IMG/VR virus record: IMGVR_UViG_3300043409_001952
Location: 1-22,658 of that record
DNA: 22,658 nucleotides
Direction: 5' to 3' (one strand)
From: a virus
The position numbers were made by a program, and so were the translations under genes. Shown here in pieces: positions 6,255 through 22,658 of this stretch (its first letter is position 1; each line of letters opens with the position of its first letter). The notes beneath the pieces were generated by a model that ran no database searches, was not told the origin of the DNA, and saw only the letters and a program-made list of their open reading frames with translations.

Positions 6255-6273
6255 GAGCAGAGGAGTTTATATT

Positions 6274-6942
6274 ATGAAGGTTATTTCATTTGGTCTGTGG
6301 GGCAACGATCCCCGATATATTGATGGGGCAGAATCCAATGTGCTGTTGGCACGACAATTTTACCCAGGATGGAAGTGTTGGTTCTTTTGCGATCAAACTG
6401 TTCCACAAGAAACCCTCAATATTCTATCACAACAATCTGACTGTCGTGTCATAATTGCGGATAGCACGAAGGAACGACAACACCGTTTGTTTTGGCGGTT
6501 TTGGGCGGCATCCTACCCTGAAGTGGAAGTTATGATCATTCGGGACACAGACTCCCGTATTGGTCAGCGTGAGCAGATGGCAGTCAACGATTGGCTATCT
6601 CGTGGAACAGGATTCCACATCATGCGAGACAATCCTCAACACAACGTACCAATTTGTGGTGGTATGTGGGGATGCAAAACCGATAGGTTGCGAAACATCC
6701 GTCAATTGATCGACAACTATTACGATGCGGATCTAGACAAAGAGGTTCGTTTCGGGGTAGACCAAGACTTTCTCATGGCAACAGTTTGGGCAATGACACA
6801 GAGCGATCGCACCGAGCATGACGAGTTCTTCGCCAAGAAGCCGTTCCCACACATTCCCCGCCAGGAGAAGTACTATGTCGGTCGTGCGTTCGGAACCACT
6901 TGCTCTGACTTCACACAACACACCAAGAAACTACCGAGATAA
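6274..6942 (+). CDS. Putative glycosyltransferase with DTD motif
   Basis: A 222-residue protein. The ATG at 6274 is preceded by a good ribosome-binding site (GGAG, spacing about 8); the longer frame from 6040 lies within the epimerase gene. The N-terminal strand VISFGLWG (3-10) and the later IIRDTDSRI (88-96) fit a GT-A fold in which D91-T-D93 is the metal/nucleotide-sugar DXD motif. The run NVPICGGMWG in the middle is also typical of such phage and capsule proteins. There is no membrane segment or signal peptide. It begins 19 nt after the epimerase and ends 3 nt before the next gene. I do not recognise a named family. It resembles, by general layout only, 'hypothetical' DXD proteins in surface-polysaccharide loci. 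Confidence 0.7.
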   Translation: MKVISFGLWGNDPRYIDGAESNVLLARQFYPGWKCWFFCDQTVPQETLNILSQQSDCRVIIADSTKERQHRLFWRFWAASYPEVEVMIIRDTDSRIGQREQMAVNDWLSRGTGFHIMRDNPQHNVPICGGMWGCKTDRLRNIRQLIDNYYDADLDKEVRFGVDQDFLMATVWAMTQSDRTEHDEFFAKKPFPHIPRQEKYYVGRAFGTTCSDFTQHTKKLPR

Positions 6943-6945
6943 ATC

Positions 6946-7809
6946 ATGAAATCAGATAAAATCATCTTCACTTGCTCTGAGCAGTTCAGCCCCTTTTGGA
7001 ACTTGCAATCGCAGATTTGGAAGACCAAGATGGGTATCGAGCCTGTCCTCCTGCTGTTTGGTAAGAAGGAGAACACGAATGTCTCCGAGGAGTTTGGTAA
7101 GGTGCACGAGATGGAGACTGACAGCAGCGTTCCTGCCATCCTTCAGGTGACCATGTCGAAGTTTATCTTCCCATCAGTCGAACCTGAAACCACATGGATG
7201 ATCGGGGACATCGACATGCTCCCGCTACAGACAAACTACTTCACCAAGCGAATCGAAAGCATTCCAAGTGATGACAACGCTTATGCTCACCTTAATTTCT
7301 GTGGCATCTCGCAGAGTATGGGTAGGAATCCGAAGGATTTCTTCTCTGTTGGTAGTCAGACAACGGGTGGGGTGAATCTACCTGGGCATTATCATATCGC
7401 CAAGGGCAAGTTGTATGGTAACCTCTTTGCACAGAACAGAACTATTGGTGATGTCGTTCGCTTTATGGTAGAATCAAAGCGGTATGGAATGTTTGATCCT
7501 GCCGTACAGAAGTACATCGGGCTTGACCCGACCATACACGGTAGTCATTGGTGTGCCGAAGAGGACTACACAAGCGAGATTCTTGCTGCAAAGGTGAAGA
7601 GCAACGAGATCCTACTTCACGGAATATGCTACGACAACCGCAACGAGCGAGTTGACCGTGCAGTGTGGAACCCAAAGACGAGGTCATATGCATTCGATCC
7701 CAATCGTTTGATCGGGGGTCAGTATGTTGACATCCATTGCCATCGTCCCTATCATGAGCAGGAAGATGCCCTGAAGACCATCCTCAAAATGGCTAACATG
7801 ATCCAATAA
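6946..7809 (+). CDS. GT-A-like glycosyltransferase, first of a tandem pair
   Basis: A 287-residue protein with TWMIGDIDMLPLQ (83-95), where D88-I-D90 is a likely DXD metal-binding motif. WCAEEDYTSE further on is an acidic motif that could hold the acceptor-activating base. The N-terminal strand DKIIF (4-8) and the phrase IEPVLLLFGKKENT (31-44) recur almost unchanged in the next gene, so the two are paralogues from a tandem duplication. Both keep the DXD, the WCA-E-(D/N)-YTS motif and the C-terminal YVDIHCHRPY or YIDMHCSVPF segment. It lies 3 nt after the previous stop. No membrane segment is seen. Function as a sugar transferase is inferred from the DXD motif and the neighbourhood. Confidence 0.72.
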   Translation: MKSDKIIFTCSEQFSPFWNLQSQIWKTKMGIEPVLLLFGKKENTNVSEEFGKVHEMETDSSVPAILQVTMSKFIFPSVEPETTWMIGDIDMLPLQTNYFTKRIESIPSDDNAYAHLNFCGISQSMGRNPKDFFSVGSQTTGGVNLPGHYHIAKGKLYGNLFAQNRTIGDVVRFMVESKRYGMFDPAVQKYIGLDPTIHGSHWCAEEDYTSEILAAKVKSNEILLHGICYDNRNERVDRAVWNPKTRSYAFDPNRLIGGQYVDIHCHRPYHEQEDALKTILKMANMIQ

Positions 7810-7812
7810 AAG

Positions 7813-7835
7813 ATACACAATAAAGAATACACAAT
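7813..7835 (+). repeat. Short tandem repeat between the paralogous transferase genes
   Basis: ATACACAAT occurs at 7813-7821 and 7827-7835 as part of a 14 bp tandem unit (ATACACAATAAAGA, then ATACACAATGAAAA). The second copy contains the ATG of the downstream gene. The repeat lies exactly at the junction of the duplicated genes and may be a remnant of the duplication. It leaves the downstream gene without a clear Shine-Dalgarno sequence. Confidence 0.7.
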
Positions 7836-8733
7836 GAAAATTGACAAAATCATCTTTTCGTCAACTGAGCCATACAGCGACTATTGGAATCTACAGGCAG
7901 AGGTTTGGAGTAACATGGGCATCGAGCCTGTGTTGTTGCTTTGGGGCAAGAAGGAGAATACAAAGGCAACCGAAAAGCACGGACGCATCGTTGAGATGGA
8001 GTTCTCTCCTGATGCAATCAAGTCCTTGCAAATGACCTTGAGTAAGTTCTACTACACGCAGACGGAGCCTGAAACCACTTGGCTCACGGGAGACATCGAT
8101 CTGTATCCCCTTCAGCGGAAATGGTTCACCGAATCTATCAAAGACATTCCTGATGACTACTATGCCCACTTAGCGTCTACCGCTATGACATCGAACAACA
8201 TCAGTTGGAACACCCACGGTGGATTTGTTGGTGGTGGTCGGGACTTGGTTGCTTACTTCCATGCTGCAAAGGGCAGAGTATTCAACGATGCTTACAAGTT
8301 CGATGGTATTTCGCTGACTGATTATGTCAACAAGATCGTGGCAACAGGTAAGTATGGCAGACACATTCCCGAGGAGTGCAAGACGATGACCCCCAAGGAC
8401 TTCGCTGCCATCGAGGGAAGTCTGTCTAAGGATCACACCAATCAGCCGTATTGGTGTGCAGATGAGAACTACACATCGGACATCCTGTGGGAGGCTGCGA
8501 ATACAGGTTTGGTTGAGTGGCAGGGTGTCTTCTATGACGGGATCAATTGGGAAAACCCATATCAATCAAACCGCATCGACCGCTACTATTGGCGAGATGG
8601 AAATTACCAAAATGTTGACTTGGCTCGATTGAGGAACAATGAGTACATCGATATGCATTGCTCCGTTCCATTTGGTCCACAGGAAAACGCCCTGACCAAC
8701 ATTCTCCGTTTGTCGGGGATGATTAAGAGATGA
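7834..8733 (+). CDS. GT-A-like glycosyltransferase, second of a tandem pair
   Basis: A 299-residue paralogue of the gene just upstream. Shared landmarks are DKIIF (4-8), IEPVLLLWGKKENT (30-43), TTWLTGDIDLYPLQ (81-94, with the DXD at D87-I-D89), and YWCADENYTSDIL in the C-terminal half. The pair differs most in the middle third, the usual acceptor-binding region, which suggests that the copies now add different residues or use different acceptors. The likely role is transfer of a sugar from a nucleotide donor in the cytoplasm, inferred from motif and context. The start is an ATG within a short tandem repeat without a good ribosome-binding site. The stop overlaps the following kinase-aldolase gene by ATGA. 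Confidence 0.72.
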   Translation: MKIDKIIFSSTEPYSDYWNLQAEVWSNMGIEPVLLLWGKKENTKATEKHGRIVEMEFSPDAIKSLQMTLSKFYYTQTEPETTWLTGDIDLYPLQRKWFTESIKDIPDDYYAHLASTAMTSNNISWNTHGGFVGGGRDLVAYFHAAKGRVFNDAYKFDGISLTDYVNKIVATGKYGRHIPEECKTMTPKDFAAIEGSLSKDHTNQPYWCADENYTSDILWEAANTGLVEWQGVFYDGINWENPYQSNRIDRYYWRDGNYQNVDLARLRNNEYIDMHCSVPFGPQENALTNILRLSGMIKR

Positions 8734-10127
8734 ATCTGATTTGCGTATCTGGTAGTTCGGGTGTGGGCAAGACCACATTTACGAAGTTGATCGAGAGCGT
8801 TATTGGCTCCGAGAACGCTGTCTGCTTGAGTGGTGACGATCTCCATCTTTGGGAGCGCAACAATCCCATGTGGAACAAATACACACACCTCAATCCAAAT
8901 GCGAACGATATCAAAACAGGTCATGCCCACATCGATGCATTGAAGAACGGCGAGACGATTACTCGTAGCCTATACAACCATAACACAGGAAAGTTCGATC
9001 CCCCAATCACCATCGAACCGAAGCCTTATGTCATTTACGAGGGTCTCCATGCCTTGTATTACGCCGATACATCTGCCATTTGTATCTTTGTTGACACAGA
9101 TGATGTCCTTAAGACCGAGTGGAAGGTCAAGCGAGACACCAAGAAGCGGGGTTACACCGAGTCACAGGTGATGGACACCATGCGGCGTAGGAAGCAGGAC
9201 GAGGATCTGTACATCACTCCGCAGCGCAACTCCGCAGACATCGTGGTCAAGTTCACCAAGGACAGGGGCGGCTCCATCTCGTTGGAGTATGTCAGCATGA
9301 CCAACAAGGGTTGGGATCTCATGTCCGAGGTAAAGGATTTCTATGACTCCCTGAACGAGTTCATAGGCATCTGCAAATCCCTCTCACTTGATCCCTCGCT
9401 CACGCAGGGGCGTGGTGGCAATGTGTCGGTGAAGTCGAAGAGTGGGTTGATCGTCAAGGCATCAGGAGCCAAGATGGCCGATATCAATCTACACCATGGG
9501 TTCTGTGTGTGTCGTACCGATGGCTATATGCCCATATTCACCACCGAGGAAGAGTACAATGACTACATTAATGGGTTAAAGAAGATTGGTGTGGGCAGAC
9601 CTTCAATGGAGACAGGCTTCCATGTTGCCATGAAGGATCAAGTCATTGTTCATACCCACCCGATCCATCTGAATGCTCTTCTTTGCTGCAAAGAGTCACG
9701 GGCGATCCTCAAGGGACTGTTCCAAGACCTATCATATGAATTCATAGAGTACACCGTGCCTGGCATGGAACTAGCCAACCGCATTCGTGAAAGTAAGGGC
9801 ATCCTGTTCCTAGAGAATCACGGACTGATTGTCGGTGCAGAAACGGCAGACGAAGCCATAAGCCTCACCGAAGAGATCAACAACAAGTGCAAGCGATGGT
9901 TGGGGAATCATGTCGAATCCTTCGTGGACTTCGATAAGAATGACCAAGCAACCAATCTACCTTTGTTCCCTGATGCTGCCGTGCTACCTGAAGAGATGTC
10001 TGCAACCAACAACTACATACTTCGGCTGATGATGGTGGCTTGCCTGACTCCGAAGTTCCTTGATGAGTTGCAAGTCAAGCACCTCAATGACATGACATCC
10101 GAGAAATACAGAAAGACTATACTATGA
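8730..10127 (+). CDS. Fusion of a PRK/uridine-kinase-like P-loop kinase and a class II aldolase
   Basis: A 465-residue two-domain protein. Residues 1-190 are a P-loop kinase: Walker A GSSGVGKTT (8-16), SGDDLHLW (34-41) at the substrate loop, YEGLHAL (103-109). The stretch 131-170 (WKVKRD, KRGYT, YITPQRNSAD) closely follows the phosphoribulokinase/uridine kinase pattern. Residues about 205-395 are a class II aldolase/adducin domain: QGRGGNVS (226-233) binds phosphate in relatives, PSMET (291-295) holds the catalytic glutamate E294, and the zinc ligands are H308 and H310 in HTHP plus H364 in ENHGLIVGA. Both active sites look intact. The enzyme could phosphorylate a sugar or polyol and then cleave or epimerise a sugar phosphate, feeding the adjacent nucleotidyltransferase, whose start overlaps its stop. 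The substrate is unknown. I know of no named enzyme with this fusion. Confidence 0.88.
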   Translation: MNLICVSGSSGVGKTTFTKLIESVIGSENAVCLSGDDLHLWERNNPMWNKYTHLNPNANDIKTGHAHIDALKNGETITRSLYNHNTGKFDPPITIEPKPYVIYEGLHALYYADTSAICIFVDTDDVLKTEWKVKRDTKKRGYTESQVMDTMRRRKQDEDLYITPQRNSADIVVKFTKDRGGSISLEYVSMTNKGWDLMSEVKDFYDSLNEFIGICKSLSLDPSLTQGRGGNVSVKSKSGLIVKASGAKMADINLHHGFCVCRTDGYMPIFTTEEEYNDYINGLKKIGVGRPSMETGFHVAMKDQVIVHTHPIHLNALLCCKESRAILKGLFQDLSYEFIEYTVPGMELANRIRESKGILFLENHGLIVGAETADEAISLTEEINNKCKRWLGNHVESFVDFDKNDQATNLPLFPDAAVLPEEMSATNNYILRLMMVACLTPKFLDELQVKHLNDMTSEKYRKTIL

Positions 10128-10951
10128 AGATCGTGATTCCTATGGCAGGGACGGGCAATCGTTTCGTTGAGAAGGGTTACGCTGACCCAAAGCCACTCAT
10201 CAAGGTGAACGGCAAGCGCATCATCGAATACATCCTAGACATGTTCGACCGCAAGAAGGACGAGTTTGTCTTCATTTGCAATGATGTGCATTTGAACACT
10301 ACCGACATGGAGAAGATCCTGAAGGAACTCGTTCCGAACGCCAAAATCGTCGCAATGCCACAGCACAAGTTAGGACCTGTCTACACAGTCAAGACTGTCT
10401 ATGACTTGATCGAAGACAACGAGGAGGTCATCATCTCATATTGCGACAACCCACACCTGTGGGATCGCAAAGACTTCGAGAATGCTATGAACAAGGGCAA
10501 GTTCGATGGCTGCGTCCTCACGCACACGGGCTTCCACCCACACACGTTGGCGCACACGAAGATGGCTTTCGTCAAGGGAGACAACGGTGTGCTTGAGGAG
10601 ATCAAGGAGAAGGCTTGCTACACCGACAATCCCCTGAACGAGCATGCGTCCACGGGTGTGTACTACTTCAACAAGGGTTCATACATCAAGAAGTATTTTG
10701 AGCAAGCCATGAAAGAAAACCTTCAATACAACGGCGAATACTATGTGACGCTCGTGTATAACCTTCTCGTAAAGGATGGTCTCAAGATCGGTTACTACGA
10801 CACTCCGTTCGTCACCGTCTTTGGCACTCCCGAGGAAGTAGAGAACTTCGAGTCTTGGGCAAAGATCCTCAAGGGCAAACAAGCCTCACAGCCACTCCAT
10901 GCTGCGGCTTGCTTCGAGTATTGGAGCGAGTACCACAAGTTGACATCATGA
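10124..10951 (+). CDS. Sugar-1-phosphate-type nucleotidyltransferase
   Basis: A 275-residue NTP_transferase family protein that should couple a phosphorylated sugar or polyol to a nucleotide. The signature loop is MAGTGNRF (7-14), followed by DPKPLI (21-26) with K23. SYCDNPHLWD (105-114) carries the metal-binding aspartate D108, and TGFHPH (135-140) is a feature of a capsule-locus subgroup I remember. GVYYFNKGS corresponds to the product-side strand. The length fits the short form without the C-terminal left-handed beta-helix. It overlaps both neighbours by ATGA: upstream the kinase-aldolase fusion, downstream the GDPD-like gene. The three look like one activation pathway. Uridylyl, cytidylyl and thymidylyl transfer cannot be separated from the motifs. 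Confidence 0.87.
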   Translation: MKIVIPMAGTGNRFVEKGYADPKPLIKVNGKRIIEYILDMFDRKKDEFVFICNDVHLNTTDMEKILKELVPNAKIVAMPQHKLGPVYTVKTVYDLIEDNEEVIISYCDNPHLWDRKDFENAMNKGKFDGCVLTHTGFHPHTLAHTKMAFVKGDNGVLEEIKEKACYTDNPLNEHASTGVYYFNKGSYIKKYFEQAMKENLQYNGEYYVTLVYNLLVKDGLKIGYYDTPFVTVFGTPEEVENFESWAKILKGKQASQPLHAAACFEYWSEYHKLTS

Positions 10952-11421
10952 TTTATATCTCTCACCGTGGCAATCTCAACGGGGCGAATCACTCCCGTGA
11001 GAACTCTCCAACCTATATCGATGAGTGCATCAACAAGGGGTTTCATTGTGAGATCGATCTCCGCATGAAGAACGGTGTTCCTCATTTAGGACACGATACG
11101 GCAGACTACCCCATCACGATCTCATGGCTACAGGATCGCATTATGTGGTTGTGGATTCATGTCAAGGAATACGAGGCTCTGATGTGGTTGATGAAGACCA
11201 TGCCATGGGCGAACTACTTCTGCCATGAGTCTGATAAGTACACCCTAGTTAGCAATGGTATGGTATGGTGTCACGACCTAACAAACCAAATGAATGCAAA
11301 CTGCGTGATTCCACTTTTGTCAAAGGAATTTATTGAATCTTGTGGACAAACGGGCTTCGGTGCGGTATGCTCTGACTTCATTTACGACTGTGTATCCAAG
11401 TTCAACAAGGAAAATCTATGA
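10948..11421 (+). CDS. Short GDPD-like phosphodiesterase
   Basis: A 157-residue protein starting at the ATGA overlap with the nucleotidyltransferase. The active-site pattern of glycerophosphodiester phosphodiesterases is visible: SHRGN (5-9) with H6 and R7, E18-N19 (the ENT position), CEIDLR (34-39) with metal ligands E35 and D37, and GHD (48-50) with H49. The rest of a typical 230-250 residue TIM barrel is only partly present, so this is a minimal or shortened form. The family cleaves glycerophosphodiesters to glycerol phosphate and an alcohol. Here, next to a kinase-aldolase and a nucleotidyltransferase, it may supply or remove a phospho-polyol group on the glycan. It could instead be a structural relative with another phosphodiester substrate. 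It ends in an ATGA overlap with the next transferase. Confidence 0.75.
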   Translation: MIYISHRGNLNGANHSRENSPTYIDECINKGFHCEIDLRMKNGVPHLGHDTADYPITISWLQDRIMWLWIHVKEYEALMWLMKTMPWANYFCHESDKYTLVSNGMVWCHDLTNQMNANCVIPLLSKEFIESCGQTGFGAVCSDFIYDCVSKFNKENL

Positions 11422-12062
11422 GCAATGTAAAACTCACTATCGGGATTCCAACAATCCCAAATCGCAACCGAAGATATCTCGAACCTCTCTTTTCCAAGTT
11501 GATGACTCAAGTCGGCAACAACAAGGATGTAGAGATCATCGCCCTAATGGACAACAAAATGATGTCCATCGGACGCAAGAAGACCTTGCTGTTTAGCATG
11601 GCGACGGGAAAGTACGCATGTATCATAGACGATGATGATGATGTGACTGAGGATTTCGTTGCAACGCTACGCTCTGTCATAGATGATCGCTTAGATGTTG
11701 ATGTGATTTGCTACGATCAAGAGGCAGACGTGAACGGCAAGAAGTGGCTTGTTAAGACGAACCTAAACCACAATCGCATTCACCCATTCAATCAGTTGGA
11801 GACGGATCGAAACGGAATCCCCGTCCCATGCAAGAGACCCCCATGGCAATGGTGTGCTTGGAAGACCTCGTTTATCAAGAACATCCCGTTCGGCGACTCG
11901 AACTGGGCAGAGGACGCAGCGTTCACCCTAGCCGCTGTAGAAGCAGCCAAGAGCCAACTCGTCCTCGACAAGGTGCTATGCAAGTACCGCTACTCACCTT
12001 CCGTGTCTGAGGCTCCACAGCAGAACATCACACCTAACCAAATGAATCGAGTTCAACTCTAA
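11418..12062 (+). CDS. GT2-family glycosyltransferase (paralogue of the one at 4753)
   Basis: A 214-residue GT-A enzyme. The first strand is LTIGIPTIPNR (6-16). The nucleotide-sugar site is the aspartate run DDDDD (71-75) after ACII, which contains the DXD. NWAEDAAF (162-169) carries the E165-D166 pair expected for the catalytic base. The segment MDNKMMSIGRKK (44-55) matches MSDNRQMSIGQKR in the gene at 4753, so the two share a recent ancestor. A PPWQW segment (141-145) probably lines the acceptor site. It begins in the GDPD-like stop (ATGA), and the next gene starts on the base after its own stop. The cytoplasmic location and unknown sugar are as for its paralogue. Confidence 0.88.
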   Translation: MSNVKLTIGIPTIPNRNRRYLEPLFSKLMTQVGNNKDVEIIALMDNKMMSIGRKKTLLFSMATGKYACIIDDDDDVTEDFVATLRSVIDDRLDVDVICYDQEADVNGKKWLVKTNLNHNRIHPFNQLETDRNGIPVPCKRPPWQWCAWKTSFIKNIPFGDSNWAEDAAFTLAAVEAAKSQLVLDKVLCKYRYSPSVSEAPQQNITPNQMNRVQL

Positions 12063-12635
12063 ATGAACATCATGGAACACATCTATCAAAATCCGTGGTT
12101 CGGTGAGAACTGGTTTACCTATCCCAAACTATACTCTTCGTTTGTTAAGAATCTACCAAACGGTTCAAAGATCGTTGAGGTCGGCTCGTGGAAGGGCAAG
12201 AGTGTTGCATACCTTGGAGTCGAGATCGTCAACTCTGGCAAGGACATCAAGGTCGATGCCGTGGATACTTGGATGGGTTCTCCTGAGTCTCCCGATCATC
12301 TACAAGATGCCTATGTCAAAACGAACACTCTGTATTCGTTGTTCCTCACCAACATCGCTCCTTTGGCTCATGTGATCAAGCCGATTCGTATGACATCAGT
12401 CGATGCCGCCAAACTCTACGAAGACAACTCTCTTGATGTTGTGTTCATCGATGCAGGACATACCTATGAAGCAGTAAAGTCAGATGTCGCTGCTTGGCTT
12501 CCCAAGGTCAAGGTCGGTGGCATCCTTGCGGGTCATGATTACGCATGGAGTGATGATGTTCGTCGGGCAGTTGATGAATCGATTGCTCCTATTGTTGAGA
12601 CCGAGGGCTGCTTTGTCTTCCAAAAGGTTCAGTAA
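12063..12635 (+). CDS. Class I SAM-dependent methyltransferase (Methyltransf_24-like)
   Basis: A 190-residue protein. Motif I is VEVGSWKGKS (38-47), the SAM-binding glycine loop. VDAVDTW (64-70) holds the acidic residue (D65 or D68) after strand 2. VVFIDAGHTYEAVKSDVAAW is the typical strand 4 and following helix of the Methyltransf_24 family, and GGILAGHDY follows as strand 5 with an HDY that may bind metal. Relatives methylate sugar hydroxyls in capsule, lipopolysaccharide and antibiotic pathways. Here it probably caps or decorates the glycan made by the cassette. The ATG at 12063 directly follows the previous TAA; a second ATG at 12072 is a possible start. Fold assignment is safe; the acceptor is not known. 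Confidence 0.87.
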   Translation: MNIMEHIYQNPWFGENWFTYPKLYSSFVKNLPNGSKIVEVGSWKGKSVAYLGVEIVNSGKDIKVDAVDTWMGSPESPDHLQDAYVKTNTLYSLFLTNIAPLAHVIKPIRMTSVDAAKLYEDNSLDVVFIDAGHTYEAVKSDVAAWLPKVKVGGILAGHDYAWSDDVRRAVDESIAPIVETEGCFVFQKVQ

Positions 12636-12696
12636 GTATCATCACAAAATATCACTCCAAGTCAGATGACTCCCGTCCAACTATAAAGTAATCACA

Positions 12697-13464
12697 ATGA
12701 AAAAAATCAGCAAAATGGTATTGGTTCTTGCGGGGGGTGATTCCAAATGGGACAGGCAAGAAATTTCTTGTAGAGAGACATGGGCAAACCCAAGGTTTTT
12801 TGATAGTGACACTAGAGTTTATTTCGTGCGAGGCAATACCGCTGCGTGTTTCTACGACAAAACTATCACACGAAATGCCGATTGGGAAAAGCACCGCTTC
12901 GACATGTCCACAGAGCAGATTCTTAATGCAAAGGTAGAACTCGATCACCACACAAGAACCATTCATGTTGATGTGCCTGATGGACATGCGTACAGTATGT
13001 TCAAGTTTGGTGTGGCTCTTTTGGAGTTGCGTAAGCACTATGAATGGGACTACCTTGTAAGACCAAACACAGGAAGTTATGTCAATCTGAATGTCCTCAG
13101 CGAAGATCTGAAGCATCTTCCCAAACAGAACTTGGTGTTTTCCATGCCAATCAAGCATTGGGGAATCGAGTATGGGAGTGGAGCATGTTTCACCATCACA
13201 AACGACTTGTCTGAAAAATTGGTTCAGAATGTTTCCAAACTCATTGATATTGGAAGACAGTCGATCATTCCTGACGATGCGATCATTGGATCGATTCTCA
13301 TGGCTCCTGTCGTTCCCGCTATGAGAGCAGAGGTCACATACGACGATATTCTTAAAGGAAACGATTGGTTCAAACTCGACCACCATCACCATTATTTTGT
13401 GTCTACCAAAGATGACCGACCACATTATCATGTACATCGCAAATTTTATGGAGAATCCCCATGA
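12697..13464 (+). CDS. GT31-like (beta-1,3-galactosyltransferase-type) protein without a DXD motif
   Basis: A 255-residue protein that follows the outline of the Galactosyl_T/Fringe superfamily: CRETWA (25-30) like the R-x-x-W of GT31, WDYLVRPNTGSYVN (117-130) where the family has a VKxDDDxYVN strand, SGACFTITNDL (161-171) like the SGxGYVLS region, and PDDAIIGSIL (192-201) like the EDVxxG acceptor motif. The metal-binding DDD is replaced by P123-N124-T125-G126, so metal-dependent transfer by the usual mechanism is doubtful. It may use a different metal site, be a lectin-like relative, or be inactive. It lies 61 nt after the methyltransferase and has no clear Shine-Dalgarno sequence. It ends in an ATGA overlap with the next epimerase. 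The family call rests on pattern, not on a search. Confidence 0.6.
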   Translation: MKKISKMVLVLAGGDSKWDRQEISCRETWANPRFFDSDTRVYFVRGNTAACFYDKTITRNADWEKHRFDMSTEQILNAKVELDHHTRTIHVDVPDGHAYSMFKFGVALLELRKHYEWDYLVRPNTGSYVNLNVLSEDLKHLPKQNLVFSMPIKHWGIEYGSGACFTITNDLSEKLVQNVSKLIDIGRQSIIPDDAIIGSILMAPVVPAMRAEVTYDDILKGNDWFKLDHHHHYFVSTKDDRPHYHVHRKFYGESP

Positions 13465-14453
13465 GTGACACAGTTCTTATCACAGGCGTAGCGGGTCTGA
13501 TTGGATCACGGATGGCTGTATGGATCTTAGACAATGTGCCAAATATCCATATCATCGGGGTCGATGATATGAGTGGTGGGTACAAGGAAAACATCGACCC
13601 AAGAGTTGAGTTTCATCAACTTGACTGTGGGAGTGATGAATTCTCTGATTTGGTGGCACACACGAAACCAAAATATATCTATCACTTTGCCGCCTATGCC
13701 GCTGAGGGATTAAGTCCCTTTATCCGAAAGCACAACTACCAAAACAACCTTATGTCCACGGCTAATGTGGTCAATACCTGCATCAACAATGATGTGTGTC
13801 GGTTGGTCTTCACTAGTTCGATGGCGGTCTATGGTGCTTCTGTCCCGCCTTTCTGTGAATCGCTCCCAAGAAACCCCATCGATCCCTATGGTGTAGCCAA
13901 GGCATCGTGCGAAAGAGATATTGAAATCGCAGGTGAGCAACACGGTATGGATTGGTGCATCATTCGTCCTCACAATGTGTACGGTCGAAACCAAAACATT
14001 TGGGATAGGTATCGCAATGTGTTGGGAATTTGGATGCATCGCCATCTCAACGATAAGACTCTTTCCATTTACGGCACAGGGCAACAGAACCGTGCCTTCA
14101 GTTACATCGATGATTGTTTGAAGCCTTTGTGGGTTGCCGCCATCTCTGATCGTGCATCGAAACAGATCATCAATCTTGGTGGAATGAGAGAGTACAGTAT
14201 CAACGAAGCAGCAGATATCTTGATCCAAGTCATGGGTGGTGGGACAAAGGAATACTTGGAGGAGAGACACGAAGTCAAACAAGCGTGGTCTACATACGAC
14301 AAGTCTGTTGATCTTCTTGGCTACGAAGACAAAACTTCACTTGTGGAAGGTCTATCTCTCATGTGGGAGTGGGCAAAGTGTCAACCAAATCGACCACAAA
14401 AAAAGTGGGAGTCTTATGAGGTTACAAAGGGAATTTATTCTTATTGGAAATAA
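13461..14453 (+). CDS. NAD-dependent sugar epimerase/dehydratase (second SDR)
   Basis: A 330-residue extended SDR enzyme. The cofactor loop is GVAGLIG (9-15), IIGVDDMSGG (31-40) contacts the cofactor, and YHFAAYA (74-80) is the usual strand-4 segment. The active site is VFTSSMAVYG (116-125) with S119/S120 and Y143-x-x-x-K147 in YGVAK. RPHNVYGRNQ and YGTGQQNRAFSYIDD are typical of UDP-sugar epimerases and GDP-mannose-type dehydratases. It is only distantly similar to the SDR at 5349, so the cassette probably makes two different modified sugars. It overlaps the GT31-like gene by ATGA and ends 2 nt before the helicase ATG. The exact reaction is not determined. Confidence 0.9.
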   Translation: MSDTVLITGVAGLIGSRMAVWILDNVPNIHIIGVDDMSGGYKENIDPRVEFHQLDCGSDEFSDLVAHTKPKYIYHFAAYAAEGLSPFIRKHNYQNNLMSTANVVNTCINNDVCRLVFTSSMAVYGASVPPFCESLPRNPIDPYGVAKASCERDIEIAGEQHGMDWCIIRPHNVYGRNQNIWDRYRNVLGIWMHRHLNDKTLSIYGTGQQNRAFSYIDDCLKPLWVAAISDRASKQIINLGGMREYSINEAADILIQVMGGGTKEYLEERHEVKQAWSTYDKSVDLLGYEDKTSLVEGLSLMWEWAKCQPNRPQKKWESYEVTKGIYSYWK

Positions 14454-17029: not shown

Positions 17030-18232
17030 ATGCTATCGTTCGGTCATCACAATGCTCTATGCGAACAGATGGTGCAAAACAAGCACCTCGACCACATCGA
17101 GGATCTTATGCTCCTCCAAGGGGCAGAAGGTCTCGCCAACTCCCTTGCCTTCCTCAAGGACATCATACAGAGCCTCAAGGTAGGTTCTACATCTATGGGG
17201 ATGTCTACCAAGTTTGACGGAAAACCTGCTGTCATATGCGGCGTAAACCCCGAAAACAAGAAGTTTTTTGTGGCGATCAAAGGAGTCTTCGGCAAGGAAT
17301 CGAAGTACTTCCACACCGAAAAAGAGATCCACGACTACATTCAAATCCCCGATCTAGCCGACAAACTAGCCATCGTCCTCAAGTACCTCCCCAAAATGGG
17401 CATCAAGGGGGTTCTTCAGGGCGATCTCATGTTTACCCAAGATAGCAAGAAAACATTAGACATTGACGGCAAGCCCCACATCGGGTTTCAGCCCAATACG
17501 ATCTTTTATGCTGTTCCTGTTGCTAGTGAATTGGGCAAGAAAATCGCTACCGCAAAGATTGGAATCGTCTTCCACACAGAGTATTCTGGAGCAACCCTCT
17601 CTGATCTCTCTGCCACATCATTCAATTTTGATTCCTCCAAACTCAAGAATGATGCTGATGTGTGGGTCACAGATCCTAACATCTACGACCTCTCTCCTGT
17701 CATGATCAAGGAAGTTGAAGCAGCGAACCTACTGAAGAATGTTGCCGAATGTGAGGCTCTCTCTAAGAAGGTAGCCCCCTTCCTACCCACACTCTTAGCA
17801 CGGAAGGATCTCATGCCCCTTCTCCTTCCCTATATCAATAGCACGATTAGTGGTGGTCTCACTAACTTCTCTGCTTCAGGACTCAAACTGAATGTAAAAA
17901 CGAAGTTAGAAAGGGAGATAAATAAGTTGAAAACGGAAAATGGCAAAGAGGGCAAGACTGAGGGAATGAACAAAACTCTCAACTTCATCGATGCCTACCA
18001 ATCTCAGTTTTCAGATATGTTCGCTCTGCACAACATGCTCGCCAAGGTGAAGGAAGTGATTCTAGGTAGACTCTATGGGGTCTCACAATTAGGTCACTTC
18101 TTCATGGATGATGATGGTATTCGTCCAACCGACCCAGAAGGAATCGTTGTTGTCCACTCTGGGTCTGTTGTGAAACTAGTCAATCGTCTACGCTTCAGCC
18201 GACAGAACAGGAAAGTCAGAAATGCTCAATAA
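17030..18232 (+). CDS. Nucleotidyltransferase-like protein with DNA/RNA ligase superfamily motifs
   Basis: A 400-residue protein with ribosome-binding site AGGAAAGG before the ATG. Motifs of covalent nucleotidyltransferases appear in order: motif I KFDGKP (61-66, where K61 would be adenylated), QGDLMF (130-135) like motif III (xGEL), IGIVFHTEY (177-185) near IIIa, PEGIVV (369-374) as motif IV and VKLVNR (381-386, K382) as motif V. The nearly 190 residues between IIIa and IV hold an extra helical insertion (about 225-345), unlike the compact cores of ligases. No OB-fold domain follows, so it may be an RNA-ligase-like or stand-alone adenylating enzyme. From memory, proteins of this kind are common and uncharacterised in marine T4-like phages (a DUF6267-type family). 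Its last 11 nt overlap the next gene. Confidence 0.7.
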   Translation: MLSFGHHNALCEQMVQNKHLDHIEDLMLLQGAEGLANSLAFLKDIIQSLKVGSTSMGMSTKFDGKPAVICGVNPENKKFFVAIKGVFGKESKYFHTEKEIHDYIQIPDLADKLAIVLKYLPKMGIKGVLQGDLMFTQDSKKTLDIDGKPHIGFQPNTIFYAVPVASELGKKIATAKIGIVFHTEYSGATLSDLSATSFNFDSSKLKNDADVWVTDPNIYDLSPVMIKEVEAANLLKNVAECEALSKKVAPFLPTLLARKDLMPLLLPYINSTISGGLTNFSASGLKLNVKTKLEREINKLKTENGKEGKTEGMNKTLNFIDAYQSQFSDMFALHNMLAKVKEVILGRLYGVSQLGHFFMDDDGIRPTDPEGIVVVHSGSVVKLVNRLRFSRQNRKVRNAQ

Positions 18233-21200
18233 GTTTTCCGAACACGCCCACAAGATTGAGGTGTCCAAGAAGGATACCATTGTTATTGCTTTTGGGCGAA
18301 TGAACCCACCAACCATCGGTCACGGGGTACTCGTTGATACGGTTGTTTCGGAAGCACAACAGAGGAACGCTGATCACTTGATCTTCACAGGAAAGACGCA
18401 GGATTCAAAAAAGAATCCCCTCTCTCACACACAAAAAGTAACATACTTGGAGAAGTTTTTCCCTCAAGGCAAATTTCCTTTGAACACAGAGGGACACCCC
18501 TATGGAGCAGTTCTCCATGCTTGCTCTCTTGGTTACAAAAACATCGTCATGGTTGCAGGAAGTGATCAGGTAGAAGAGTTCAAGCAGATTGAACAATACC
18601 AAGGCAAGGTTGCCATGAAGGATCCAAAGAAACGAACCTACTCGTTCGAGTCATTTGAGGTCGTACAGGCGGGTGAGGTGAGAGCCGAACAATGTGATGG
18701 CAGTAACGGCATGACTGCCTCCAAGATCCGCAAAGCCGCATTCGGTGGAGATTTTGATAATTTTGCAGCAGGGATTCCAGGAAGCGACATCAATCTCAAG
18801 ATGAGCCTGTACACGGATGTCCGTAGGGGTCTTGGGTTGAAGGAAGAGTACCTCCCCGAAGCGGAGGCCGATCAAGACGAGGTCACAATCATCGCTCTCA
18901 CCTCATCCGAAAAGGATCTGAGTGATACTGTAGAAAAAATGCAAGCCATCTGCAAGAAGCGCAAGATCAAGTTCTGTGCGGTGAAAACAAGTAAAGCACA
19001 GATCGAAATCTCAGGAGTCGCTTCCGACAAGATCCTCATCAAAAACTATGATGGAGAGGGGAACGACCAAACAATCATCCCAGGAAACACCGTAGCGGTT
19101 GTTCGTGGAGGGGTTATGAATAGCGACATCGGTGTTGCCATCATAACAATCCTACAAAACAACGGAGTGTTCATGGTCAATGAGCGTGGAGGAATGGAAC
19201 TCTGTGCTAACAAACTAGAGACTGCCATTGCCCTAAAAAAGCACAACCTCCCGCACCCACGCACGGCGTTCGTGTGCGACGAATCAAACATTGAGTCTGC
19301 GGTCAAGGAAATAGGTGGCAAGTTCCCTGTTATTGTCAAAACCCTCACAGGTGCTGAAGGTATCGGTGTTTCAAAAATCGACAGCATGGAGAGCCTGAAA
19401 TCAGTACTACAGACCTTATGGAAGTACGGGGCTGAGGTCATCATGCAGGAGTTTCTGCCCAATTTCAAGAATGATGTTCGATCAATCGTACTTAATGGCA
19501 AGATTTTTGCTTGTGCGAAACGAGACAAGGCTCCGAAAGATTTCCGAACGAACATTGCTCGTGGCTCAAAAGGTGGAGCAATGCAACTCACCGACGAAGA
19601 AATCAAGTTGGTTGAGCAAGCCGCACGGGTGAGCAAATGCTACTATGTCGGTATCGACCATGTTATCAATGATGGCAAGCCATACATCATCGAGATGAAT
19701 GCTAGCCCAGGCACAGGTAACATCTACTATCGCTACCACGAAGACGGCAAGGGAAAGAATAATGTGAAGGGCGAGGAACTCGTTGAGGATCTTGTTGATT
19801 ACATCACGAACAAGGCGCATTGGAAACTATTCTCCAACCTCGCTGTGCGTGAGCCTGTCACAATTGATGGAGTTGAGTACACCGCAAAGATCGACACAGG
19901 TAACAGCGGTTACAACATGATCCATGCGGAGAACATCAAAGACAACGGCAACCACACCGTGACCTTCAAACTACCTAGCGGCAAGAAGACAACAAAGAAG
20001 ATCGTGAGTAGAATCACCGTAAAGAGCGGCATCGGAAAGAAGACTCGCCTTGTCGTTCTCATGGACATCGAATTCCACGGAAAGAAGTACCCCAACATCA
20101 AGTTTAGTTTGGGTGATCGAAGCCATATGTCTTCTAATGTGCTAATTGGTTTGCAGTTCCTCAGCAAAACAGGGCTGATGGTTGACCCCTCTGAAGCGAT
20201 CTATCCTCAACCAGAAGTTGGCACGAAACGCAAGAGTGAGGAAGAGGAAGAGGAAGAGATTGTGGAGATGCCAACACAAGTGGCAGTTACCGCAACCAAA
20301 GATCTATTTCGTTCTGCCAATGTCACCAAAAAGTTGTTTTCGCTTGCAAATAAGAAAAGGACAATGACATCGGCAGAATTTAAGAAAGAGTGCGAGAAGA
20401 CCAAGAATGAGATCATGATTCAAGCACACACCACAACAAACGCTGTGGTTACGCTCAACCAATTTGCCCAAAAGTCATATATTGGTAAGTTCATCACCAA
20501 ACTGTTTGACAAGTTGATGCAAGGAGGGGGAATGGACTTTCCTGATGTCAACGTGTTGCTACACAAAATCTCATACATGGCACACATGATTCCCTCTTTC
20601 CTTGGGATGGGCGATGAGGTGGATGGCAATCCTGTACTTGAGGATCGGGATCGAACAGAGATTGAAGATGCGTTGGCAATGCTGAATAACATCACGACCT
20701 CGAAAATGAGCATCAAGGAACAGGTAAACAGAACGATTTCTCTTGAGCAAAAAGCACTCTCGAAGGGAAACAAAGATGCCTCTGATCTGTATCGCTTGTT
20801 CATCGAGTACGGAAAAAATCAAATGTACGAGTCCCACAAAGACTCTTCGGATCCAATCACAGACATCGAGTTCCTTTTATGGGAAGTCAGTCCTCCTACA
20901 GGTGCGGCTCGAAGGTTCTCCAAGAAAGCAAAGATCAAGCAGGAGTTCCAAAAGCGATATGGCAGTCGTTGGAAGGAGGTTTTCTATGCGACAGCATGGA
21001 AAATGCACAATGATTCCTACGACCCCAATTTGAACATGGTGGAAGATGCCATCTCCAAGATCCATTCCAAGATCGTTGTAGAGGGGTCTAGTTGGGCAGC
21101 AAAGGCGAACGAGAAGAGAAGACCACTTGGTGTCGGAACAGATAAGATAGCAAAAACTTATCGACAAGACACCCCAGGTCAGCGGGAAAGGCTAAAGGAA

Positions 21201-21587
21201 GAAACCCCCAAACAAGAGACAGAGAAGGAAAGAGGCGACACTTACAAGCAATGGGCAAAACTTGTGAATATGTCCTCCAAGGAACTGTCCAATTTCATAG
21301 ATTCTGACGAAGGAAAAGAGGCGGGATTGTCTCGCAAGGAATCGGGGAAAGCGGGATCCGATGGCGGGAAAATCACAAGCGGCAGAGATTCTGCCCGTGC
21401 GATTGTTCGAATGTTGGATCGTTCCAAGGACAAGTGGACAGATAATGATTGGAAGTGGGCAGGTAAACAGGTTAACTTCATCAATCGCATGAAGGGAGCA
21501 AAGGGAGCATTCCGAGAAAGTGACGGAACACCTACCCGCAAATTGCTTGCTCTGAAGATCTGGGGACACAACCCTGAAAAAAGGTAG
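18222..21587 (+). CDS. Multidomain fusion: HxGH nucleotidyltransferase, RimK-like ATP-grasp, RimB-like protease, DUF3140-like tail
   Basis: An 1121-residue protein. Residues 17-195 form a cytidylyltransferase/NMNAT-type domain: GRMNPPTIGHG (25-35) with the HxGH-type site (TIGH) and MTASKIRKA (164-172) as the ISSTxIR motif. Residues 222-535 are a RimK-like ATP-grasp, with VIVKTLTGAEGIGVS (370-384) as the ATP-binding loop and YIIEMNASPGTGN (488-500) holding the metal ligands. Residues 545-655 are a RimB-like retropepsin, with AKIDTGNSG (555-563) and SSNVLIGLQFL (637-647). After EEEEEEE (673-679) comes a helical part, then KRYGSRWKEVFYATAWKM (911-928), a motif recurrent in phage structural proteins. 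Residues 1008-1120 resemble DUF3140: KLVNMSSKELSNFI, SGRDSARAIVRML and LKIWGHNPEK. AGGAAAG precedes the ATG, and the start overlaps the ligase-like gene. Confidence 0.85.
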   Translation: MLNKFSEHAHKIEVSKKDTIVIAFGRMNPPTIGHGVLVDTVVSEAQQRNADHLIFTGKTQDSKKNPLSHTQKVTYLEKFFPQGKFPLNTEGHPYGAVLHACSLGYKNIVMVAGSDQVEEFKQIEQYQGKVAMKDPKKRTYSFESFEVVQAGEVRAEQCDGSNGMTASKIRKAAFGGDFDNFAAGIPGSDINLKMSLYTDVRRGLGLKEEYLPEAEADQDEVTIIALTSSEKDLSDTVEKMQAICKKRKIKFCAVKTSKAQIEISGVASDKILIKNYDGEGNDQTIIPGNTVAVVRGGVMNSDIGVAIITILQNNGVFMVNERGGMELCANKLETAIALKKHNLPHPRTAFVCDESNIESAVKEIGGKFPVIVKTLTGAEGIGVSKIDSMESLKSVLQTLWKYGAEVIMQEFLPNFKNDVRSIVLNGKIFACAKRDKAPKDFRTNIARGSKGGAMQLTDEEIKLVEQAARVSKCYYVGIDHVINDGKPYIIEMNASPGTGNIYYRYHEDGKGKNNVKGEELVEDLVDYITNKAHWKLFSNLAVREPVTIDGVEYTAKIDTGNSGYNMIHAENIKDNGNHTVTFKLPSGKKTTKKIVSRITVKSGIGKKTRLVVLMDIEFHGKKYPNIKFSLGDRSHMSSNVLIGLQFLSKTGLMVDPSEAIYPQPEVGTKRKSEEEEEEEIVEMPTQVAVTATKDLFRSANVTKKLFSLANKKRTMTSAEFKKECEKTKNEIMIQAHTTTNAVVTLNQFAQKSYIGKFITKLFDKLMQGGGMDFPDVNVLLHKISYMAHMIPSFLGMGDEVDGNPVLEDRDRTEIEDALAMLNNITTSKMSIKEQVNRTISLEQKALSKGNKDASDLYRLFIEYGKNQMYESHKDSSDPITDIEFLLWEVSPPTGAARRFSKKAKIKQEFQKRYGSRWKEVFYATAWKMHNDSYDPNLNMVEDAISKIHSKIVVEGSSWAAKANEKRRPLGVGTDKIAKTYRQDTPGQRERLKEETPKQETEKERGDTYKQWAKLVNMSSKELSNFIDSDEGKEAGLSRKESGKAGSDGGKITSGRDSARAIVRMLDRSKDKWTDNDWKWAGKQVNFINRMKGAKGAFRESDGTPTRKLLALKIWGHNPEKR

Positions 21588-21648: not shown

Positions 21649-22658
21649 ATGTTTACAAATCCACACAACCAAAATCTATTGAATGATGTTATGCGTGTTC
21701 TTAATGGTGAGACCACCGAACAGCCAATTCGACCAATCCCTATGTGGCTCACCGAAGCCGCCGAGGAAGCCGTAAAGAGCCTCAATGAAGCATATGAGTC
21801 GGGTGAGGTGATGACCCTTGAAATCAAGCGGGACATTCTCCGCAAGCATCTCAACGAAGCCATCAGCACCTGTGCTGATTGTGAGGTCACCAAGGAGACT
21901 CCGCTGCAATATGAAGAGGCTATCGCAGAGGTAAAGCGTGTTGGCAATCGACCCACGACAGGAGTCCCCGCAGGTGCTTCAAAAGAAGATCACGAAAAGT
22001 CTCGTAAAGCGAATCCGTTCAGGGCGAGTTTGGGAAAGGGAGTCCCCGCAGGAGCAAAGAAGGAAGAGTTCGAAGAGGACGAGTTGGATGAAGCCAATCA
22101 GCGTCTTAAAAAGAACAAGCCATACGAAGAACTCTACTACAAGTGGTTCGACGGCGTGGAAGTGTCTGTGATGGACATGGGCAAGATCTCCAAGGAGATT
22201 CAAGCCGCTTTGGACACAAAGGCAGACCTCAATAAGGTCATGCCCGAACTCGTCAAAAAGTACGGCAAGAACTCGCCAACAAAGAAGGAAGAGTTTGAAG
22301 AGGACGAGTTGGATGAAGGCAAGAAGAGTTGGCTTGATACTATCTTGGCAGCACAGGCAAAGGTGAAACCAAAAGACACTCTTGATGGAAATGGGAATCC
22401 CAAGCCCAAGCATGTCAAAGAAGATGTGAATGAAGCCAAACAGAGCGGAAGTTTTGCCGCCTTCTTCAAGACCAAGGAAGACAGTACTTTCGCCACAAAC
22501 GCACTCAGATTCCGAACTGAAGCCGAGGCAAAGCAATACGGACGGGATCTCTTCAATCGATGGTTCGGAGCCTCTGAGTGGAAGGTTATGCCCCACACAG
22601 ATAAGCCAAACTACGAACTGGTCAACAATGAGTTGAAGGCGATCAAAGAGTCTTCGCA
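21649..22658 (+). CDS. Acidic repeat protein, likely prohead core/structural (3' end outside window)
   Basis: At least 336 residues, open to the window edge; starts at an ATG with AAGGGA upstream, behind a late promoter. It is very rich in Glu, Lys and Ala. Six sites fit the T4 prohead protease (gp21) rule (L/I/V)-x-E|(A/G): LTE|A (34-37), LNE|A (45-48), LNE|A (68-71), LDE|A (146-149), LDE|G (221-224) and VNE|A (260-263). KKEEFEEDELDE occurs twice (137-148 and 212-223), and GVPAGA twice (105-110 and 131-136). Between them are small folded-looking segments, for example YYKWFDGVEVSVMDMG (163-178). Acidic proteins with such sites are typical of T4-type scaffold or head-internal proteins (gp67, gp68, gp22, IPs). 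The exact homologue is not recognised. Confidence 0.65.
   Translation, partial: MFTNPHNQNLLNDVMRVLNGETTEQPIRPIPMWLTEAAEEAVKSLNEAYESGEVMTLEIKRDILRKHLNEAISTCADCEVTKETPLQYEEAIAEVKRVGNRPTTGVPAGASKEDHEKSRKANPFRASLGKGVPAGAKKEEFEEDELDEANQRLKKNKPYEELYYKWFDGVEVSVMDMGKISKEIQAALDTKADLNKVMPELVKKYGKNSPTKKEEFEEDELDEGKKSWLDTILAAQAKVKPKDTLDGNGNPKPKHVKEDVNEAKQSGSFAAFFKTKEDSTFATNALRFRTEAEAKQYGRDLFNRWFGASEWKVMPHTDKPNYELVNNELKAIKESS
21961..22052 (+). repeat. Direct repeat encoding GVPAG
   Basis: GGAGTCCCCGCAGG is present at 21961-21974 and 22039-22052, 78 bp apart and in the same reading frame, so each copy encodes GVPAG. Both copies are followed by a lysine-glutamate-rich stretch. They sit within the acidic late protein and mark module boundaries. 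Confidence 0.85.
22056..22318 (+). repeat. 38 bp direct repeat within the acidic late protein gene
   Basis: The copies lie at 22056-22093 and 22281-22318 with a single silent difference (C at 22071, T at 22296). Each encodes KKEEFEEDELDE and ends at a predicted prohead protease site. The 225 bp spacing keeps the frame. Near identity at the DNA level implies a recent duplication or ongoing recombination between copies. Confidence 0.9.

What the first reader, a model, noticed from the sequence alone, without database searches (positions are those of the whole stretch)
18222..21587. One protein joins nucleotidyltransferase, ATP-grasp ligase, aspartyl protease and structural-type tail
The order HxGH nucleotidyltransferase, RimK-like ATP-grasp, RimB-like DTG protease, phage YATA motif and DUF3140-like region is visible from motifs. 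In bacteria RimK adds glutamates to ribosomal protein S6, and RimB-type proteins are encoded next to it. A phage version fused to a nucleotidyltransferase suggests a self-contained modify-and-trim system acting on a host ribosomal protein, a phage protein or a cofactor. I know of no described function for this combination.
Basis: partly seen in the sequence, partly recalled or inferred. Interest (0 to 1): 0.82.

Follow-up and report, generated by a model that had tools for sequence, protein, structure and literature searches.

The report
Phage head-cargo NTase–glutamate ligase–protease fusion
A T4-like phage encodes one long protein that joins a nucleotidyltransferase, a RimK-type amino-acid ligase and a RimB-type protease, and its start and linkers look like the address label and cutting sites of proteins packed inside the phage head, so it is probably delivered into the host with the DNA.

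Summary
ORF 18222-21587 (1121 aa) is intact and at least 80 viral contigs encode relatives. Its order is a PPAT/NMNAT-like nucleotidyltransferase (motif TxGH, not HxGH), a RimK-type ATP-grasp ligase, a RimB/Rlo-type retropepsin, a variable helical region and a DUF3140/DUF6321 tail. Catalytic residues of all three domains are conserved.

Most relatives begin with a T4-style capsid-targeting sequence (MKNFTRHLTE|A; T4 ipIII MKTYQEFIAE|A) and carry a prohead-protease-like site, usually poly-Glu then (L/I)xE, after the protease domain. Homologous nucleotidyltransferases with the same N-terminus (S-SM1, S-CREM2), and a stand-alone RimK-RimB of YerA41, were found in virions by mass spectrometry. I conclude that this is most likely head-packaged, injected cargo.

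Co-occurrence ties the nucleotidyltransferase to the upstream gene (DUF6267, which models as an RNA-ligase-like fold), not to RimK-RimB. The fusion therefore looks like a shared vehicle rather than one pathway.

Phage RimK with a C-terminal RimB domain has been known since 2008. New here are the fusion and the packaging signals. The RimK target (S6 or another protein) is unknown. The window's own targeting sequence is imperfect.

The parts
18222..21587 (+). the fusion protein gene, 1121 aa
   Evidence: intact ORF; 80 related loci fetched
18222..18260 (+). N-terminal capsid-targeting-like peptide MLNKFSEHAHKIE|V (imperfect in this copy: K instead of L/I three residues before the cut)
   Evidence: 27 of 34 distinct family N-termini match [LI]xE before the NTase (26 if L075, where the match lies upstream of the likely start, is left out), 23 with A next; model pLDDT <50 for residues 1-15
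18270..18845 (+). PPAT/NMNAT-like nucleotidyltransferase, residues 17-208; TxGH at 31-34, SxxxxR-type motif ending at R170
   Evidence: PHROG 3041 E 2.5e-49; Z 13.4 to 3pxu; invariant residues
18885..19736 (+). RimK-type ATP-grasp ligase, residues 222-505; K373, E410, R420, R442, N444, E491, N493 invariant
   Evidence: Pfam 1.1e-29; TIGR00768 143.5 bits against cut-off 143.4; invariance
19845..20198 (+). RimB/Rlo-type retropepsin domain, residues 542-659; DTGN with D558
   Evidence: PF05618 3.5e-8; Z 15.4 to 2pma; D558 invariant
20238..20267 (+). poly-Glu linker EEEEEEE-IVE|MPT (residues 673-682), candidate prohead-protease and/or RimB cleavage site
   Evidence: disordered in model, 647-684
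20268..21101 (+). variable, mostly helical region with further modules
   Evidence: poorly aligned or replaced in relatives
20877..20885 (+). second internal (L/I/M)xE site, FLLWE|VSPP
   Evidence: L/I/M-x-E in 39 of 49 homologs
20946..21008 (+). FQKRYG..WKEVFYATAWKMH motif ('YATA')
21252..21563 (+). DUF3140/DUF6321-like C-terminal tail
17030..18232 (+). DUF6267 gene, overlaps the fusion start; RNA-ligase-like fold, KFDG (K61), PEG (370-371), K382
   Evidence: PF19782 2.6e-90; model pLDDT 88.8; Z 8.6 to Naegleria RNA ligase; directly upstream in all 70 loci of this gene cluster

Best explanation
The gene encodes a multi-enzyme cargo protein of a T4-like phage head. Its N-terminal peptide targets it into the prohead. 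The prohead protease (gp21 type) removes that peptide and probably cuts at the acidic (L/I)xE linker behind the RimB domain, separating the enzyme block from the variable C-terminal modules. The enzymes enter the host with the DNA. There the RimK-type domain would add amino acids, probably alpha-linked glutamates, to the C-terminus of a host or phage protein, and the RimB-type retropepsin would trim or edit such chains. The nucleotidyltransferase, which in cyanophages is a separate virion protein, does a different job, probably together with the RNA-ligase-like DUF6267 protein made from the gene just upstream. Shown here: the architecture, conserved catalytic residues, targeting and processing motifs, gp21 and gp23 in near relatives, and published detection of homologs of both halves in virions. 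Inferred: packaging of this particular protein, its cleavage, its injection, its substrate and the amino acid used.
For: N-termini: 27 of 34 distinct family N-termini match [LI]xE just before the NTase (26 if L075 is left out), 23 as [LI]xEA, the same layout as T4 ipII/ipIII MKTYQEFIAE|A. Control genes in the same loci: helicase cluster 8% [LI]xE, epimerase 8%, primase 0%. Linker: 34 of 37 distinct linkers have [LIM]xE against 18.7 in shuffles, and 19 of 37 have E5+[LIM]xE against 0.006; poly-E is coded by mixed GAA/GAG. Relatives carry gp21 protease and gp23, whose major capsid propeptides end LKE|A or LRE|S. The same peptide type starts independent homologs: Mosig RimK-RimB MQVQPFKNYLEE|A, Melnitz NTase MKKFSEIIE|A, Melnitz RimK FSQFITE|E. 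MS-confirmed virion NTases start MKKFSAFLNE|A (S-SM1, PMC3037559) and MKNFSSFLTE|A (S-CREM2, PMC10665884), homologous to this domain at 36% and 31% identity. YerA41 RimK-RimB is annotated 'structural protein' in a phage whose virion proteome was measured (PMC7354516).
Against: The window's own N-terminus has K-I-E, not L/I-x-E, so this copy may be cut differently or not at all. (L/I)xE is short and occurs elsewhere in the protein, also inside the folded core. No virion proteome of this lineage exists as far as I could find. The S-CREM2 authors note that such proteins could be contaminants of the preparation. The window contig itself is a fragment in which I identified no gp21 or gp23. S-RIM8 RimK has no targeting peptide, so phage RimK can also act from the cytosol. 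The ATP-grasp part of the model is low in confidence. A poly-Glu-binding serine of Pseudomonas RimK (S68) is M in this family (from the alignment).
Confidence: 0.6

Rival explanations
1. The RimB domain itself cuts the poly-Glu linker (in cis or in trans), and perhaps the poly-Glu tract of the scaffold protein gp22, so it acts as a second maturation protease; the new C-terminal glutamates could then be primers for the RimK domain.
For: Pseudomonas RimB cleaves internal runs of glutamates in vitro and in vivo (PMC11957791). E6+ runs occur in 38 of 853 genes of the fetched loci, all of them this protein, and in 20 of 24 gp22 scaffolds of the lineage, but not in T4, S-SM1, S-CREM2, Mosig or Melnitz gp22 as far as read. 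One lineage (G003/L060) lacks the run in both proteins.
Against: Several clades with intact RimB lack poly-Glu in the linker but keep a (L/I/M)xE-type site there. Mosig has RimB but no poly-Glu in the part of gp22 read. Joint loss rests on one lineage.
Confidence: 0.15
2. A cytosolic host-takeover enzyme made during infection, not packaged, that polyglutamylates ribosomal protein S6 as bacterial RimK does.
For: The RimK subfamily model is reached, though barely (143.5 against 143.4 bits); R295, R420 and N493 match three of the seven poly-Glu-contacting residues named for P. aeruginosa RimK (R64, R189, N262) (PMC10092738); Monier et al. 2008 proposed host translation as the target (PMC2530865).
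Against: Targeting peptides and virion detection of homologs; the S6-specific equivalog model is far from met (67.9 of 331 bits); a characterised bacterial RimBK hybrid did not glutamylate RpsF from P. fluorescens SBW25 (PMC11957791).
Confidence: 0.15
3. A cofactor enzyme: the nucleotidyltransferase and the ligase act in sequence on a small molecule (NAD/CoA-like or polyglutamylated cofactor).
For: The NTase resembles PPAT/NMNAT; the ATP-grasp also scores against MptN and CofF models (122 and 68 bits).
Against: NTase and RimK-RimB occur without each other in other phages; an endopeptidase domain makes no obvious sense on a cofactor; those models are far below cut-off.
Confidence: 0.06
4. The domains are catalytically dead and serve only as structural head proteins.
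For: The YerA41 homolog is annotated structural.
Against: The expected catalytic residues of the ligase and protease, and the NTase TxGH and R170, are invariant in 27 diverse sequences.
Confidence: 0.04

Closest known systems
Phage RimK with C-terminal DUF785 (Monier et al. 2008, PMC2530865; Mosig_00005; YerA41_066)
   Same: RimK ATP-grasp followed by a RimB-type domain in T4-like phages; Mosig copy also has a targeting-like N-terminus
   Different: stand-alone proteins (Mosig 461 aa, YerA41 473 aa) without NTase, poly-Glu linker or C-terminal modules; about 30% identity
Cyanophage core virion cytidylyltransferase T4-GC190 (S-SM1, S-CREM2 gp154)
   Same: homologous NTase, same kind of N-terminal peptide, DUF6267 gene directly upstream in S-SM1 as in the window
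   Different: no ligase or protease domain
Bacterial RimABK system / RimBK hybrid (PMC11957791)
   Same: RimK and RimB activities linked; DTG catalytic aspartate
   Different: bacterial hybrid has RimB at the N-terminus of RimK; here RimB is C-terminal and an NTase is added; equivalog scores for RimK and RimB are not met
T4 Alt and internal proteins IPI-III
   Same: short N-terminal propeptide or capsid-targeting sequence removed by gp21, head packaging, injection; Alt is also trimmed at its C-terminus (PMC9026906)
   Different: different enzymes; no three-domain fusion described

Membership tests
RimK family alpha-L-glutamate ligases (TIGR00768 / PF08443) | profile score above curated cut-off | tested here: met
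   PF08443 103.8 against 21 bits; TIGR00768 143.5 against 143.4, barely
RimK family alpha-L-glutamate ligases (TIGR00768 / PF08443) | ATP-grasp catalytic and Mg/ATP residues conserved | tested here: met
   K373, E410, R420, R442, N444, E491, N493 invariant
RimK family alpha-L-glutamate ligases (TIGR00768 / PF08443) | poly-glutamate-contacting residues of P. aeruginosa RimK (S7, R8, S14, R64, S68, R189, N262) | tested here: inconclusive
   R64, R189, N262 conserved; S68 is M; S7, R8 and S14 lie outside the alignment (PMC10092738)
30S ribosomal protein S6-glutamate ligase (RimK equivalog NF007764) | equivalog score | tested here: not met
   67.9 of 331 bits
30S ribosomal protein S6-glutamate ligase (RimK equivalog NF007764) | glutamate ligation to the S6 C-terminus | not testable with these tools
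   needs biochemistry
RimB/Rlo retropepsin-like superfamily (PF05618) | profile above cut-off, DTG motif and retropepsin fold | tested here: met
   33.9 against 27 bits; D558 invariant; Z 15.4 to 2pma, 14.2-14.4 to RloA/RloA2
RimB equivalog (NF052261) | equivalog score | tested here: not met
   24.4 of 200 bits
Cytidylyltransferase-like (PF01467) / HIGH-type nucleotidyltransferases | curated Pfam cut-off | tested here: not met
   12.5 against 21 bits for this copy; homologs S-SM1, S-CREM2 and Melnitz pass
Cytidylyltransferase-like (PF01467) / HIGH-type nucleotidyltransferases | fold and (T/H)xGH plus C-terminal Arg motif | tested here: met
   Z 13.4 to PPAT; T31, G33, H34, R170 invariant
T4-type head-packaged proteins with capsid-targeting sequence | short N-terminal peptide ending (L/I)xE | tested here: inconclusive
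   met in 26-27 of 34 relatives, not in the window's own copy (K-I-E)
T4-type head-packaged proteins with capsid-targeting sequence | prohead protease gp21 in the same genome | tested here: inconclusive
   present in G001, G003 and G004 relatives; the window contig is a 22.7-kb fragment
T4-type head-packaged proteins with capsid-targeting sequence | found in purified virions and cleaved | not testable with these tools
   only homologs of the parts are reported in virions (PMC3037559, PMC10665884, PMC7354516)

The most novel reading that the evidence does not exclude
The virion carries a self-processing polyglutamylation machine: its RimB domain cuts poly-Glu tracts in its own linker and in the gp22 scaffold, and its RimK domain extends or rebuilds poly-Glu tails, so that head maturation and early host takeover share one editing enzyme.
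Probability: 0.1. Interest if true: 0.85.

Novelty: new variant of a known kind. Interest (0 to 1): 0.6.

Why it matters
If right, T4-like phages inject a protein-modifying ligase together with its trimming protease, an effector type that to my knowledge has not been shown in phage virions. It gives the orphan phage RimK-RimB proteins, known since 2008, a delivery route and a testable prediction: exact N-termini in virions of cultured phages. It also suggests how such phages build cargo, by joining enzymes on one targeting peptide with protease-cut acidic linkers, and it proposes a fold for DUF6267, a Pfam family of unknown function found in many marine phages.

Tried and rejected
Phage-encoded S6 as substrate: no Ribosomal_S6 match in 15 records. 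Phage-encoded S21 as a partner: only in Mosig and Melnitz, not in the lineage. Fusion as one pathway: rejected as the default because NTase and RimK-RimB occur apart. C-terminal tail as a known structural protein: the last 221 aa have no match in named phages at E 0.01; the equivalent part of L011 hits only short stretches of hypothetical proteins. Direct sequence match of the NTase to solved structures: none by phmmer, one weak hit by profile. DUF6267 by sequence against the PDB: no meaningful hit, and Foldseek alone gave no significant match; only VIA-align gave the ligase fold. Poly-Glu as a general head trait: not seen in S-SM1, S-CREM2, T4, Mosig or Melnitz gp22 as far as read. Cellular RimK-RimB context from genome contigs: hits are mostly short MAG contigs and L101 is clearly phage, so little was learned about substrates. 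The Amidoligase review (PMC3268129) is not held. No paper mentioned DUF6267.

Full report
Observation. The ORF at 18222-21587 on the + strand encodes 1121 aa without interruption. Profile searches give RimK ATP-grasp (Pfam E 1.1e-29, residues 330-501), the RimB/Zn_protease family (3.5e-8, 550-659) and DUF3140 (3.5e-8, 1011-1093), all above their cut-offs. Residues 14-221 match a PHROG cytidyltransferase family at 2.5e-49, although Pfam's CTP_transf_like model is not reached by this copy. NCBIfam places the ligase in the RimK subfamily by a hair (143.5 against 143.4 bits) and far from the S6-ligase, LysX, MptN and CofF equivalogs.

A conserved family. A viral-contig scan found 83 stretches encoding relatives and kept 80 loci. 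Most cover the three enzyme domains and the tail where the contig is long enough, at 51-80% identity over the enzyme part, while residues of about 683-960 are replaced or extended. In 27 diverse sequences the residues expected for catalysis are invariant: T31, G33, H34 and R170 of the NTase; K373, E410, R420, R442, N444, E491 and N493 of the ATP-grasp; D558-T-G-N of the protease. The full-length model has modest confidence (mean pLDDT 59.8; NTase blocks mostly 78-89, RimB mostly 48-80, ATP-grasp poor). Even so, the RimB part aligns to DUF785 structure 2pma with Z 15.4 and to RloA/RloA2 with Z 14.2-14.4, the NTase to PPAT with Z 13.4, and RimK is the best Foldseek hit.

Targeting and processing signals. 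The family's N-termini are short peptides that end (L/I)xE, mostly followed by A, directly before the NTase: MKNFTRHLTE|A, MIERFSQRLTE|A, MTKRFADHITE|A, MEVKKLSQLITE|A. By pattern 27 of 34 distinct N-termini match; one of these, L075, matches only upstream of its likely start, so 26 is safer; 23 have A next. T4's internal proteins ipII and ipIII, read from its genome in the same call, start MKTYQEFIAE|A. T4 work (PMC9026906) shows that this decapeptide suffices for packaging and that residues 8 and 10 govern cleavage. The signal is not general: the helicase, epimerase and primase clusters in the same loci have it in 8%, 8% and 0%, while DUF6267 (83% with [LI]xE) and the small gene downstream (95%) have it. 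The window's own copy reads MLNKFSEHAHKIE|V and lacks L/I at the required place, so its processing is less certain.

After the RimB domain comes a linker that is disordered in the model (647-684). In 19 of 37 distinct linkers it holds at least five glutamates followed by (L/I/M)xE (shuffle mean 0.006), and 34 of 37 hold (L/I/M)xE (shuffle mean 18.7). The glutamates are coded by mixed GAA/GAG, so this is not simple codon slippage. In the window it reads EEEEEEEIVE|MPT. Near-complete relatives G001, G003 and G004 carry the gp21 prohead protease and gp23; their gp23 propeptides end LKE|A or LRE|S, the same specificity. A second (L/I/M)xE site, before VSPP, is kept in 39 of 49 homologs.

Independent support from other phages. 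The cyanophage core cytidylyltransferase T4-GC190 was detected in S-SM1 virions (PMC3037559) and gp154 in S-CREM2 virions (PMC10665884). Both are homologous to this NTase (36% and 31% identity) and start MKKFSAFLNE|A and MKNFSSFLTE|A. In S-SM1 the gene lies right behind DUF6267, downstream of gp43, uvsX and gp41, the same order as in the window. The stand-alone RimK-RimB of YerA41 is annotated as a structural protein in a phage with a measured virion proteome (PMC7354516); I could not read the supplementary table itself. The stand-alone RimK-RimB of Pelagibacter phage Mosig starts MQVQPFKNYLEE|A, and Melnitz has NTase and RimK as separate genes, both with such starts. The RimK of S-RIM8, which has no RimB domain, has no such start, a useful negative.

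Is it one pathway? In nine genomes, NTase and DUF6267 are both present in seven and both absent in two (Mosig, YerA41); RimB is present in exactly those two and in the three with the fusion. So RimK-RimB works without the NTase and the NTase without RimB. The simplest reading is that the fusion shares a vehicle. The NTase's partner is more likely DUF6267, which models well (pLDDT 88.8) and aligns best to RNA ligases (Naegleria RNA ligase Z 8.6, T4 Rnl2 about 7), with invariant KxDG, EG and K as in covalent nucleotidyltransferases. These Z values are middling and Foldseek alone was not significant, so this is a lead, not a proof.

Mechanism. I judge most likely a head-packaged, gp21-processed, injected enzyme block in which RimK adds amino acids (probably glutamate) to a protein C-terminus and RimB trims them, as in Pseudomonas (PMC11957791). 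Shown: architecture, conserved active sites, signal motifs, virion detection of homologs. Inferred: packaging of this very protein, cleavage, injection, target and amino acid. Rivals are RimB self-processing of the poly-Glu linker and perhaps of the gp22 scaffold (E6+ in 20 of 24 gp22 of the lineage; RimB is known to cut internal poly-Glu), a cytosolic S6 ligase, a cofactor enzyme, and dead structural domains.

Known and new. Phage RimK with C-terminal DUF785 was described in 2008, with RimK next to regA and a PolB fragment and host translation as suggested target (PMC2530865), and a RimBK hybrid with the opposite order is characterised in bacteria (PMC11957791). As far as I could find, new are the fusion to the virion NTase, the capsid-targeting and linker signals, and the ligase-like reading of DUF6267. 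Hence: new variant of a known kind, interest 0.6.

Noticed in passing
17030-18232: DUF6267 (PF19782), a family of unknown function, models as an RNA/DNA-ligase-like fold with invariant KxDG, EG and K motifs; co-occurs with the NTase in 7 of 7 phages that have either, among 9 records checked
   Followed up: partly
21649-22656: next gene downstream has repeated acidic linkers with (L/I/V)xE sites (EEFEEDELDE|AN, EEFEEDELDE|GK, KEDVNE|AK), as if it were another multi-module head protein
   Followed up: no
L130-L165 (gp22 scaffold genes): gp22 scaffold of this phage lineage carries runs of 7-11 glutamates in 20 of 24 distinct copies, absent from S-SM1, S-CREM2 and T4 gp22 as far as read
   Followed up: partly
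L024, L027-L030, L032, L051, L056: one clade has VGATDAR/VESTDAR/VRSFDAR in place of the NTase motif GMSASKMR, keeping only the arginine
   Followed up: no
L084 6001-7953 and the +1 gene of the related loci: a DUF5824-like module is fused to the NTase in Melnitz but is a separate small gene just downstream of the fusion in the related loci, with an (L/I)xE start: modular shuffling
   Followed up: partly
3993-14453: glycosyltransferases and nucleotide-sugar epimerases inserted between uvsX and the gp41-like helicase
   Followed up: no
L100 747-2264: RimK-RimB protein on a contig filed as Candidatus Izimaplasma, with an acidic start containing GIVE|AEG; probably a phage contig
   Followed up: partly
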